Of a DNA stretch of 27,084 nt, positions 5,311 through 14,868 are shown one piece after another (position 1 is the stretch's first letter; each line of letters starts with the position of its first letter). The stretch lies in IMG/VR virus record IMGVR_UViG_3300021092_000165, positions 1 to 27,084 of that record; one strand, 5' to 3'. The stretch is from a virus. The notes beneath the pieces were generated by a model. That model was given only the letters and a program-made list of their open reading frames with translations. It searched no databases and was not told where the DNA came from. Position numbers and translations under genes: made by a program.

Positions 5311-5841
5311 TCAGCCCTGCTGATCCAGCTGCTTCGAGCCGGTGGTGTTCAGATCTTTGTTGTAGTGCCCAACCTGCGCGTAGCTCAGTACAGGCTTCTG
5401 GCTCATGCGGAAAAACACCATTTGACCGATCTTCATGCCGGAATACAGCGGCAGCGGCAGTAGCTGACGGCTGTTCTTCAGCTCTAGCGTCAACACGCTG
5501 CCATGCCAGCCTGGATCTGCGTAACCAGCGTGCAGGTTTTCGTAGCCTTCACGGGCGCGGCTGGACTTTAAGAAGAACAAGCCGGCGATGTTTTCTGGCA
5601 TGTTGAACACTTCAATGGTTTGAGCAAGGATGAATTGTCCAGGGCGCAGCAGGTAAGGGTCGTCCGCCGTTGCATTTGCAATGCTTAGCGGACGCATGTT
5701 TAAGTTTTCGACAGATTCAACCATGATCGTGTCGCCTAGCCGCAGGTCAAGACTGGCTGGATTGACTAACGCTTCGTCATAGTTGGGCACCATGCCGTCT
5801 GTGCAGAGTGCTTTGATCTCGTAGTCACAGAGGATGGTCAT
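5311..5841 (-). CDS. dcd: dCTP deaminase / dUTPase-family protein
   Basis: The 176-aa product has the trimeric dUTPase-like fold signature of dCTP deaminase. NPASLDLRLG is at 27-36, LRPGQFILAQT at 65-75, SSRAREG at 93-99 and DPGWHGSVLTLELKN at 109-123, with Glu120 at the catalytic glutamate position. The enzyme would convert dCTP to dUTP, feeding dTTP synthesis; some relatives also hydrolyse dUTP. The SSRAR motif fits dCTP deaminases better than plain dUTPases. It is the only nucleotide-metabolism enzyme in the window. It stands alone, with a 469-bp gap-rich stretch upstream, and an inverted repeat lies 58 bp before its start. Confidence 0.85.
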   Translation of the reverse strand: MTILCDYEIKALCTDGMVPNYDEALVNPASLDLRLGDTIMVESVENLNMRPLSIANATADDPYLLRPGQFILAQTIEVFNMPENIAGLFFLKSSRAREGYENLHAGYADPGWHGSVLTLELKNSRQLLPLPLYSGMKIGQMVFFRMSQKPVLSYAQVGHYNKDLNTTGSKQLDQQG

Positions 5842-11540: not shown

Positions 11541-12308
11541 ATGACCTCAATCAATAATCTCAAGCACGATCATAAAAACGCTCGTAAGCGTACTGATCGC
11601 TCTGCAATGCTTATTGCAGAATCCCTCAAGCGTTACGGTGCGGCTCGTTCTATCGTCATCGACGAAAACAACCGCATTCTTGCTGGTAACGGCACCATCG
11701 AAGGTGCTAAAGCTGCTGGCATCAAAAACGTACGCATCATCGACGCAGAAGGTGATGAGGTCATTGCCGTCAGACGATCTGGTCTTACAGAAGACGAAAA
11801 GGTAGGTCTTGCACTAGCTGACAACCGCACTAGCGATCTCAGCGAGTGGGATGGCGCCATGCTTTATCAGCTCAGCGAAGAACATGACATCTCCGCTTGG
11901 TTCGACAAGAAAGAACTAGAAGACCTCTTCGGTACTGAAGAAGCTCTCGACGAAGACAGCCCATACACAAACAAAACCAACGCACCGATCTACGAGCCCA
12001 CAGGTGAGATCCATAAACCTAAACAGCTCTACGATCCAACCAAAACAAATCAGCTAATCGCTGAAATCGAAAACGCTGACATCCCTGATGACGTAAGGGC
12101 TTTCCTCATTTCAGCAGCTCATCGCCATACAGCTTTCAACTACAGCAAGATTGCTGACTTCTACTCCACAGCACCGAAAGAAATTCAAACACTCTTTGAA
12201 GACTCTGCTCTCGTCATCATTGACTTTGAACAGGCAATCCAAAACGGATTTGTCAAACTAGATCAAAGCGTAGAAGAAGCTTTCAACCAGGATCATCCCC
12301 ATGCGTAA
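11541..12308 (+). CDS. ParB/Srx-fold protein paired with a glycosyltransferase
   Basis: Residues 1-110 form a ParB-like domain: NARKRTDRSAMLIAESLKRYG, IVIDENNRILAGNGTIEGAK, and LALADNRTSDLSEWD. In typical ParB the loop is G-H-G-R; here it is GNGT, so nuclease or nucleotide chemistry may differ. The C-terminal half (about 145-255) is a second conserved block (PIYEPTGEIHKPKQLYD, AAHRHTAFNYSKIADFYS, ALVIIDFEQAIQNGFVKL), which I associate with phage ParB proteins next to TAGT-like glycosyltransferases. It overlaps the glycosyltransferase gene by 8 bp, so the two are made together. It is not a plasmid-partition ParB: no HTH and no ParA gene are seen. A role in DNA modification is inferred. Confidence 0.78.
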   Translation: MTSINNLKHDHKNARKRTDRSAMLIAESLKRYGAARSIVIDENNRILAGNGTIEGAKAAGIKNVRIIDAEGDEVIAVRRSGLTEDEKVGLALADNRTSDLSEWDGAMLYQLSEEHDISAWFDKKELEDLFGTEEALDEDSPYTNKTNAPIYEPTGEIHKPKQLYDPTKTNQLIAEIENADIPDDVRAFLISAAHRHTAFNYSKIADFYSTAPKEIQTLFEDSALVIIDFEQAIQNGFVKLDQSVEEAFNQDHPHA

Positions 12309-13158
12309 TGACTTCTGCGTTTTTATCCTGTCAAATCGTAGACCGGATAACATTAAAACCCTAGAGACCCTACAGCGATCTGGCTACACAGGTAAGTGGT
12401 ACATCGTCATTGATGACGAAGATCCTACTGGCAATCAGTACAAAGCAACCTACGGCGATAAAGTCCTCGTATTCTCAAAAGCTAAAATCGCGCAGACAAC
12501 AGACTCCTGCGACATATCAACTGATAGACGCACTCCACTATGGGCTCGTAATGCCTGCTGGTACTTAGCCAAACAAGTAAACTGCCGGTTCTTCTGTCAA
12601 CTCGACGACGACTACAGCTGGTTCGCTTACCGCCGCATCGGTCGTAAAAATCCAGCAGAACCGCCAAAATACTCCAACTTTCGCGCTGAAAGCCTAGATC
12701 TCATCTTCGCTGGCATGGTCCAATTCCTCCAGGAAACACCATCCGTCTCCAGCATCGCCTTCTCTCAAGGCGGTGACTACAACACAGATTCACTCAAAGC
12801 AAGACGAGTCCTGCGTAAAGCAATGAACTCATTTTTCTGTGACTCTGAACGCCCTTTCAACTTCATCGGTAAATTCAACGACGACGTCAACACTTACATC
12901 TCACACGGCGCTACCGGCAAACTATTCTTCACCTACTGCCCTATCCAACTAGAACAAGCTCAAACTCAAAAAAACAAAGGCGGCATCACTGAAGCCTATA
13001 AAGAAAGTGGCACCTATGTAAAATCCTTCTACACCGTCATGATCTCTCCATCCTCAACATGGATTGAACTCATGGGGCATTCCAATCCTCGCCTTCACCA
13101 CACTCACGATTGGAATAAGGTCTGTCCTAAAATTATTCATGAAAAATATTGCCGCTAA
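12301..13158 (+). CDS. GT-A fold glycosyltransferase, TAGT-like
   Basis: The 285-aa product opens with a nucleotide-sugar-binding pattern (VFILSNRRPDNIKTL, then WYIVIDDEDPTGNQY). It carries LDDDY at 101-105, matching the metal-binding DxD motif. Later blocks are NSFFCDSERPFNFIGKFNDD at 176-195, QTQKNKGGITEAY near 221 and GTYVKSFYTVM at 237-247. I connect it with the TET/JBP-associated glycosyltransferases, predicted to glycosylate hydroxymethylated bases in phage DNA. No base hydroxylase or hydroxymethylase is in the window, so the acceptor is unknown. Position between replication and packaging genes would suit modification of new DNA. It overlaps the ParB-like gene. The GT-A call is firm; the DNA target is inference. 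Confidence 0.75.
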   Translation: MRNDFCVFILSNRRPDNIKTLETLQRSGYTGKWYIVIDDEDPTGNQYKATYGDKVLVFSKAKIAQTTDSCDISTDRRTPLWARNACWYLAKQVNCRFFCQLDDDYSWFAYRRIGRKNPAEPPKYSNFRAESLDLIFAGMVQFLQETPSVSSIAFSQGGDYNTDSLKARRVLRKAMNSFFCDSERPFNFIGKFNDDVNTYISHGATGKLFFTYCPIQLEQAQTQKNKGGITEAYKESGTYVKSFYTVMISPSSTWIELMGHSNPRLHHTHDWNKVCPKIIHEKYCR

Positions 13159-13198: not shown

Positions 13199-13522
13199 AT
13201 GGCAACTCATCGCGGTACTACAGCAGAAACTGAACTACGCGCTCAACGCTTCGCTCGCATCATCGCTAACGGTGGGCGTAGGTCGGACTGTGTTCGCTTT
13301 GCAGCCGAAAACTGGGGGGTAGGAGAGCGCTCTGTTGATAAATACCTTCAGATGGCTCGTGATCAGCTACGCGCTGATTGGGACATCGAACGACCGCAAA
13401 TGATCGCTGATCTACTCTCCCAGTGCTCCACCCTGCAAATTGAAGCCCGTCGCGCTGGGCAATATCACATCGCACTTGGTGCTATCAACACCGCTGCCAG
13501 ATTGGCGCAGCTCTGCTCGTGA
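13199..13522 (+). CDS. terS: Terminase small subunit
   Basis: The 107-aa product starts MATHRGTTAETELRAQRFAR and contains an HTH-like stretch (RRSDCVRFAAENWGVGERSV) followed by a long helix, as in small terminase subunits that bind the packaging start site. It directly precedes the large subunit; the stop overlaps the next GTG (GTGA). The length is a little short for the family. Call based on HTH plus position. Confidence 0.75.
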   Translation: MATHRGTTAETELRAQRFARIIANGGRRSDCVRFAAENWGVGERSVDKYLQMARDQLRADWDIERPQMIADLLSQCSTLQIEARRAGQYHIALGAINTAARLAQLCS

Positions 13523-14868
13523 GCATTCTTTCTGCAGCGCCAGAAGGTCATATCCTCCAGCAACTCAACTATTCCGGCGAGCTAATCAATACTGATCAGC
13601 TCCTGGATCGCATCAAAGCAGATCTGCACCCTGGACAGCTTGCCTTTGTTGATGACAACACAACGCAGATCATTGGCATCAGCGCCGGCTATGGGGCCGG
13701 GAAAACCCGAGCTTTAGCGGCAAAAGCTGTCACACTCGCAGCCGCCAACCAAGGTTTCACTGGCGCTGTCATGGAGCCGACTGGTCCCCTAATCCGCGAT
13801 ATTTGGCAGACAGACTTTGAAGCCTTCCTGGAACACTACGAGATCCCCTACACCTTTCGCGCTAGCCCGCTGCCTGAGTACATGCTCCACCTGCCAGGCG
13901 GTGACACCAAGATTTTGTGCCGCAGCTTCGAGAACTGGAGCCGCATCATCGGCTTGAACCTTGCTTGGGTGCTTGCCGATGAGATCGACACTGTCAATCC
14001 AGCTATCGCCAACAAGGCATTCCCGAAGATCCTTGGTCGCCTACGCTCCGGCAACGTTCGCCAATTCGGTGCAGCATCTACGCCAGAAGGTTTCCGCTGG
14101 ATGTGGACTACCTTCGGCAGCGAGCAAGCCAAAGATCGTCAAGATCGCAAGCTCATCAAGATGCGGTCAGCAGACAACCCACACCTGCCGACAGATTTCA
14201 TTGAGCGTCTAGAAGCGAACTACGACCCCAATCTGCTCAAGGCATACCTTGACGGTGAGTTTGTAAACCTCACCACCGGCACCGTTTACGACCGCTTCGA
14301 CCGCAGCAAGCACGTCATCAGCAGCCTGCCAGACACTGACCGCGAACCGTTACGCATCGGCGTTGACTTCAACGTTGCCAACATGTCCGCCATCATCGGC
14401 GTCAAACTCGGCACCAACCTGCTCGTCATTGACGAGATCAGCGGTGCTCACGACACTGATGCCCTAGCGCAGCAGATCAAAGCACGCTACCCAGACCGTC
14501 GTATCTACATCTACCCAGACGCCTCAGGTGGTAACCGCAGCACCAACGCAACCCAAACCGACATCCAGATCCTCGAAAGCTACGGGATGTCGAACCAGTC
14601 ACCACGGGCGAACCCGCCAGTGCGTGACCGTGTATCCGCTGTCCAAGCGCTGCTAGAAAACGGCAAAGGGCAAGTGCGCCTACAAATCAGTCACACCTGC
14701 AAACGCCTGATCGAGTGCCTAGAACTCCAGTGCTACACAGAAAAGGGCGATCCTGACAAGGATGCCGGGCATGACCACATGAACGACGCGCTCGGCTACC
14801 TAATCTGGCGCGAGTTCAACCCACTTCACGCTGGCGCTGGCAGAAGTACTGGCGTCCGCCTGTACTAA
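13519..14868 (+). CDS. terL: Terminase large subunit (ATPase and nuclease)
   Basis: A GTG start at 13519 is supported by the overlap with terS. The 449-aa product has an ATPase domain with Walker A GYGAGKT at 57-63 and Walker B WVLADEID at 150-157. A coupling-type motif FGAASTPEGF lies near 185. The C-terminal RNase H-like nuclease shows its acidic residues in IGVDFNVANMSA, IYPDASGGN and HMNDALGYLIW. It pumps DNA into the prohead and cuts concatemers. All motifs are intact and the length is normal for siphophages. TATACT 5 bp after the stop may be a promoter for the next gene. Confidence 0.95.
   Translation: MSILSAAPEGHILQQLNYSGELINTDQLLDRIKADLHPGQLAFVDDNTTQIIGISAGYGAGKTRALAAKAVTLAAANQGFTGAVMEPTGPLIRDIWQTDFEAFLEHYEIPYTFRASPLPEYMLHLPGGDTKILCRSFENWSRIIGLNLAWVLADEIDTVNPAIANKAFPKILGRLRSGNVRQFGAASTPEGFRWMWTTFGSEQAKDRQDRKLIKMRSADNPHLPTDFIERLEANYDPNLLKAYLDGEFVNLTTGTVYDRFDRSKHVISSLPDTDREPLRIGVDFNVANMSAIIGVKLGTNLLVIDEISGAHDTDALAQQIKARYPDRRIYIYPDASGGNRSTNATQTDIQILESYGMSNQSPRANPPVRDRVSAVQALLENGKGQVRLQISHTCKRLIECLELQCYTEKGDPDKDAGHDHMNDALGYLIWREFNPLHAGAGRSTGVRLY

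What the first reader, a model, noticed from the sequence alone, without database searches (positions are those of the whole stretch)
11541..13158. ParB-like / TAGT-like glycosyltransferase pair between replication and packaging genes
An atypical ParB-fold protein (GNGT in place of the usual G-H-G-R, plus a second conserved domain) overlaps by 8 bp with a GT-A protein bearing LDDDY. TET-associated glycosyltransferases are predicted to sugar-coat hydroxylated bases in phage DNA. No base-oxidising or hydroxymethylating enzyme is in this window, so the target and the ParB part's task are open. Codon use is richer in A/T than the surroundings, which suggests a separately acquired cassette.
Basis: partly seen in the sequence, partly recalled or inferred. 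Interest (0 to 1): 0.72.

Follow-up and report, generated by a model that had tools for sequence, protein, structure and literature searches.

The report
Swappable phage DNA-modification cartridge with glycosyltransferase
Next to its DNA-packaging genes this cyanobacterial virus carries a two-gene sugar-transfer cassette in a slot where its close relatives carry DNA-methylating or other DNA-altering enzymes, so it probably coats the viral DNA with sugar, apparently without any of the enzymes known to prepare DNA bases for that.

Summary
A 255-aa ParB-like protein (11541-12308) overlaps by 8 bp a 285-aa GT-A enzyme (12301-13158) of Pfam family TAGT. The "second domain" (residues 131-255) is the key part: a helical domain with no Pfam or PDB match, found beside this GT in 73 of 74 viral loci found by the domain and 28 of 29 genome loci found by the GT, often as a stand-alone ~130-aa gene. 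The ParB part is an optional head. In close relatives (terminase 83-91% identical) the same head, including its GNGT motif, occupies the same slot before TerS but is joined to a DNA methyltransferase, a Mom-type enzyme or another DNA-modification set. Of 76 unique loci, 18 carry the GT cassette and 58 carry DNA modifiers. The slot is therefore a DNA-modification cartridge port and the GT very probably acts on DNA. In 41 records with the pair, no TET (search lacked a positive control), C5-methyltransferase or TGT was found, and thymidylate synthase in one only. Chemistry is untested. The unit also sits in Rac-type prophages of 1,572 of 5,426 E. coli genomes, so it can be tested there.

The parts
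11541..11930 (+). ParB/Srx-fold head (residues 1-130) with GNGT in place of the usual GxxR box
   Evidence: fold match Z 10.9 to ParB 7bnr_A; 75-81% identical heads fused to DNA methyltransferases at the same slot in relatives
11931..12308 (+). C-terminal helical domain (residues 131-255), obligate partner of the GT; motif Y-T..K...P.YEP ... FL..A..RH..FNY..IA.YY ... E.Q.L.E.SALVIID...AI..G (coordinates include the stop codon)
   Evidence: alignment A3; stand-alone gene in 25 of 75 adjacent loci; with GT in 73 of 74 loci found by the domain alone; no Pfam family and no PDB match
12301..13158 (+). GT-A glycosyltransferase, Pfam TAGT (PF20691), with DxD motif LDDDY
   Evidence: Pfam 104 bits; GT-A model; invariant acceptor-half residues across distant phages
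13199..13522 (+). small ORF taken as TerS; downstream border of the cartridge slot
   Evidence: 107 aa, phrog_34910 of unknown function; named TerS from its place before TerL; conserved in GT-bearing and MTase-bearing relatives
13519..14868 (+). terminase large subunit
   Evidence: Pfam Terminase_6N/6C

Best explanation
The two genes are a self-contained DNA-modification cartridge in a phage slot reserved for such cartridges. The ParB head is a shared adaptor that brings different modifying enzymes to phage DNA before packaging. The C-terminal domain is the dedicated partner of the GT: it docks on it and presents or activates the acceptor base. The GT then transfers a sugar from a nucleotide-sugar donor to DNA, shielding it from host nucleases. 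Shown here: gene layout, families, obligate pairing, slot exchange with known DNA modifiers, and absence of four known handle-maker families (TET without a positive control). Inferred: DNA as the substrate, the roles of head and C-domain, and the protective purpose. Unknown: the base, the sugar and the linkage.
For: Slot exchange: among 76 unique loci with this ParB head, 43 have a fused N6/N4-MTase, 8 a Mom-type gene (Pfam Mom 6.5e-54, phrog_1384 up to 6e-61), 3 a C5-MTase (PF00145 2e-46), 4 an atypical MTase plus a PLP-enzyme gene, and 18 the C-domain + GT. On the TerS tree the cargo changes at least 15 times; well-supported branches force at least 5 for GT. Obligate pairing: C-domain and GT co-occur in 73/74 and 28/29 loci; genes overlap in 68 of 82; Mantel r 0.64, permutation maximum 0.21. 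Context: directly before terminase genes in window relatives, E. coli Rac-type phages, jlb1, c5 (between cos and terminase), NTR1 and Porphyromonas phage; next to polymerase, clamp-like or RecA-like genes in large phages. Family precedent: T6 TAGT adds a second glucose to glucosylated hmC in DNA (PMC13216743; T6 hits PF20691).
Against: No biochemical data. All evidence for DNA as substrate is by association. No free hydroxyl exists on canonical bases and no known handle-making enzyme was found, so the acceptor is unexplained. The T6 enzyme is distant: the window GT profile does not find it and it shares 10 of 41 near-invariant residues. C-domain function is unknown.
Confidence: 0.76

Rival explanations
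1. Protein glycosylation. The GT sugars a protein such as its C-domain partner, the terminase or a virion protein, and the ParB head only brings it to packaging complexes.
For: No acceptor handle on DNA could be found. The best fold matches include protein glycosyltransferases, though these are fold-level only. The acceptor half is near-invariant across very different hosts, as expected if the acceptor is the conserved partner.
Against: All 58 other cargoes of the same head are DNA modifiers or sets led by one. Large-phage copies sit among replication genes. The one characterised TAGT acts on DNA (PMC13216743).
Confidence: 0.13
2. Classical two-step route: a TET-type or hydroxymethylating enzyme, from the missing part of the phage or from the host, makes hydroxylated bases that this GT sugars.
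For: Family name and the Pfam match. The window is a 27-kb record and may be incomplete.
Against: Phages listed as complete that carry the pair (c5 31.8 kb, jlb1, HHTV-2, NTR1 and others) have no TET, C5-MTase or TGT hit, and only the 191-kb Vibrio phage has a thymidylate synthase. No common host supply is known to me that spans Escherichia, Lactobacillus, Nocardia, Haloarcula and cyanobacteria.
Confidence: 0.09
3. Cell-surface (seroconversion-type) glycosyltransferase carried as a moron gene.
For: GT-A/GT2-like fold shared with cell-wall enzymes such as TarP; some carriers are prophages.
Against: Matches TAGT, with no GT2 Pfam hit at E<=1. No membrane-partner gene was noticed. Obligate C-domain context and slot shared with DNA modifiers.
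Confidence: 0.02

Closest known systems
Phage T2/T6 beta-glucosyl-HMC-alpha-glucosyltransferase (TAGT, PF20691)
   Same: Same Pfam family (T6 37.2 bits) and phrog_842; GT-A fold; phage-encoded.
   Different: T6 enzyme extends a sugar already on hmC and sits next to a gene annotated thymidylate synthase. The window enzyme is distant (10 of 41 key residues), is tied to the C-domain, and comes with no hydroxymethylase or first GT.
ParB-fused phage DNA methyltransferases (phrog_498; ParB-CTPase fold fusions, PMC12704722)
   Same: Same ParB head, same slot before TerS, 75-81% identical heads in relatives.
   Different: Cargo is C-domain + GT instead of a methyltransferase. That survey does not mention glycosyltransferases (0 occurrences).
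Mu-type Mom DNA modification
   Same: Mom-family genes occupy the same slot after the same ParB head in relatives.
   Different: Unrelated enzyme and chemistry.
CmoX/CmoY cytosine hypermodification of Synechococcus phage S-B43 (PMC12783734)
   Same: Cyanophage DNA modification often found with ParBc-domain proteins of unknown role; SPPC C5-MTases also occur in this slot.
   Different: Uses a carboxymethyl handle and amide ligase, not a sugar; no C5-MTase is present in the 41 GT records.

Membership tests
TAGT (Pfam PF20691) | Score above Pfam's curated cut-off | tested here: met
   104.4 bits against 27.5; 41 of 41 records with the pair ring
TAGT (Pfam PF20691) | GT-A fold with DxD metal/donor motif | tested here: met
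   LDDDY near-invariant in 44 sequences; GT-A model and matches
TET-linked base glycosylation pathway | TET/JBP oxygenase in the same phage | tested here: inconclusive
   No hit over cut-off in 41 records, but no positive control rang
TET-linked base glycosylation pathway | C5-methyltransferase providing 5mC | tested here: not met
   0 of 41 records; controls rang in 10
T-even type hmC glucosylation | Thymidylate-synthase-family hydroxymethylase in the phage | tested here: not met
   40 of 41 records lack PF00303; only the 191-kb Vibrio phage has one; controls rang in 9
T-even type hmC glucosylation | Sugar on DNA | not testable with these tools
   Needs nucleoside mass spectrometry
ParB/Srx superfamily | ParB/Srx fold | tested here: met
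   Z 10.9 to 7bnr_A over residues 1-137; phrog_620 1.5e-33
Canonical ParB partition protein | Conserved arginine of the P motif needed for NTP binding (PMC12704722) | tested here: not met
   GNGT in window and relatives, if this box is the P motif as I align it; a nearby substitute was not excluded
Canonical ParB partition protein | HTH domain and ParA partner | tested here: inconclusive
   No Pfam HTH in the protein; no ParA seen among the ORFs, not searched by family

The most novel reading that the evidence does not exclude
C-domain + GT forms a new two-component DNA glycosylation machine that sugars an ordinary base directly, or through a handle made by the C-domain, without prior hydroxylation. 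It is spread through phages of Bacteria and Archaea and through Rac-type prophages of E. coli.
Probability: 0.42. Interest if true: 0.88.

Novelty: new variant of a known kind. Interest (0 to 1): 0.74.

Why it matters
A 2026 study counted 288 phage genomes with a TAGT but no other known DNA glucosyltransferase and left their role open (PMC13216743). This work gives many such enzymes an obligate partner domain, places them in a slot used by DNA modifiers, and offers a testable system present in 29% of complete E. coli genomes. It also suggests a role for phage ParB domains, described as unknown in the hypermodification context (PMC12783734): a shared adaptor for swappable DNA-modifying enzymes. 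If sugar is found on DNA without a hydroxylated base, that is new DNA chemistry.

Tried and rejected
GNGT as a mark of GT function: rejected, since MTase-fused heads have it too. ParB as the obligate partner: rejected, since a third of adjacent loci have the C-domain alone and Vibrio phages lack the head. Fold of the C-domain: no Pfam family, no PDB sequence match (best E 0.11), no structural match above Z 2.5; it was not modelled alone, so a known fold is not excluded. Plasmids: no GT match. Foldseek matches to cell-surface GTs are fold-level only. The 2013 Iyer et al. paper that, from memory, named TAGT is not held, so prior mention of a ParB-TAGT link there cannot be excluded.

Full report
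WHAT IS THERE. Window 11541-12308 (+) encodes a 255-aa protein and 12301-13158 (+) a 285-aa protein; they overlap by 8 bp. A small ORF taken as TerS (13199-13522) and TerL (13519-14868) follow. The phage resembles Synechococcus phage KBS-S-2A (78.8% identity over 10% of the query), and a cyanobacterial-type AbrB-like gene is present, so the host is probably Synechococcus or a relative. The annotation of KBS-S-2A shows no comparable gene pair before its terminase, and it is not among the GT hits.

THE GT. It scores 104 bits with Pfam TAGT (cut-off 27.5). A model from 41 related sequences has pLDDT 87.7 and a GT-A fold. Across 44 diverse relatives the donor half and the acceptor half are both near-invariant. 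Named phages with the pair infect Escherichia, Salmonella, Lactobacillus, Nocardia, Porphyromonas and Haloarcula; Vibrio phages have the GT with the C-domain only.

THE PARTNER. The ParB protein has two domains. Residues 1-130 have the ParB/Srx fold. Residues 131-255 form a helical domain with no Pfam, PDB or fold match so far. This second domain is the constant partner of the GT. Of 84 GT loci it was found in 82; the other two begin at or near a contig end just before the GT. Genes overlap in 68 of the 82, and in 25 of 75 adjacent cases the domain stands alone without a ParB part. A scan with the domain alone returned loci with GT in 73 of 74 new cases, and a scan of bacterial genomes with the GT found the domain in 28 of 29. 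In the phage collection all 28 records with the domain also have the GT. Domain and GT distances correlate (Mantel r 0.64, permutation maximum 0.21; ParB head with GT only 0.26, against 0.48 for the domain in the same set).

THE SLOT. Relatives of this phage were collected by terminase and by ParB head. At the same place before TerS, a ParB head 75-98% identical to the window's carries different cargoes. In 76 unique loci these are: 43 fused N6/N4 DNA methyltransferases, 18 C-domain + GT, 8 Mom-type genes, 3 C5-methyltransferases with an SPPC motif, and 4 atypical methyltransferase plus PLP-enzyme sets, one of these with an Asp_Arg_Hydrox gene as well. The last seven were assigned by reading them and checked by Pfam for representatives or by BLAST. 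On the TerS tree the cargo changes at least 15 times; the alignment is short and the tree search quick, so the exact number is uncertain. A port whose 58 other cargoes all modify DNA, or are led by a DNA modifier, makes DNA the likely substrate of the GT.

OTHER CONTEXTS. The pair lies directly before terminase genes in E. coli Rac-type phages, jlb1, c5, between the cos site and terminase, NTR1 and a Porphyromonas phage; in HHTV-2 it is about 3 kb before TerL. In large phages the C-domain and GT sit among polymerase, clamp-like and RecA-like genes (names by eye), with tandem GT copies: five, plus a cytidylyltransferase-like gene, in L050. The divergent copies keep the donor half but lose acceptor-half residues. 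This would fit a second sugar being added, as T6 TAGT does, but that is inference.

NO KNOWN HANDLE. In 41 records with the pair, TET (0, no positive control), C5-MTase (0), TGT (0) and thymidylate synthase (1) were searched, while TAGT rang in 41. Seven of these are named phages listed as complete. A canonical base offers no hydroxyl, so the acceptor is the open question.

MECHANISM. Most likely the ParB head and/or C-domain bring the GT to phage DNA, the C-domain helps present the base, and the GT attaches a sugar before packaging. Shown: layout, families, obligate pairing, slot exchange, absence of the handle-makers searched. Inferred: DNA substrate, domain roles, protection. Unknown: base, sugar, linkage.

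E. COLI LINK. The pair is found at least in part in 1,572 of 5,426 complete E. coli genomes and in at least 80% of its length in 863. In K-12 MG1655 the gene ynaK is the first 86 residues of this ParB head; relative to a Rac-type phage an ~11.5-kb stretch between ynaK and ydaY, with the GT and terminase genes, is missing. Expression in a lab K-12 strain would therefore be a clean test.

NOVELTY. TAGT, ParB-MTase fusions and unexplained solitary TAGTs are known (PMC13216743, PMC12704722, PMC12783734). The obligate C-domain and the cargo exchange were not found in the papers read here. I rate it a new variant of a known kind, with new chemistry possible.

Noticed in passing
L271:3121-4990: After a ParB-methyltransferase fusion in the same slot: a 384-aa protein with an Asp_Arg_Hydrox domain (GNAT-like start by eye) and a PLP-enzyme gene; a candidate unknown DNA hypermodification pathway.
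   Followed up: partly
L253:2179-3237, L263:1598-2659, L273:3285-4343: C5-methyltransferases with an SPPC motif next to a ParB head ending in a zinc-ribbon-like tail; possible relatives of the CmoX carboxymethyltransferase.
   Followed up: partly
L351:4878-5141 (E. coli K-12 ynaK, b1365): ynaK is the truncated ParB head of the Rac-type cassette; an ~11.5-kb stretch with the GT and terminase genes is missing between ynaK and ydaY.
   Followed up: yes
L050:1428-6852: C-domain followed by five tandem TAGT genes and a cytidylyltransferase-like gene near clamp-like and RecA-like genes of a 115-kb phage contig.
   Followed up: partly
L088:90-938 and L089:75-833: Lactobacillus phages LL-Ku and Ld17 lack the ParB/C-domain gene and keep GT genes that align only in part, suggesting decay after loss of the partner.
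   Followed up: no
L005-L008: GT, C-domain and TerS 97-98% identical to the window but TerL only 32-33% identical where it is covered: recombination just downstream of the slot.
   Followed up: no
window 5311-5841 (-): dCTP-deaminase-like gene (PF22769 6e-29) in a phage that probably modifies its DNA; role not studied.
   Followed up: no
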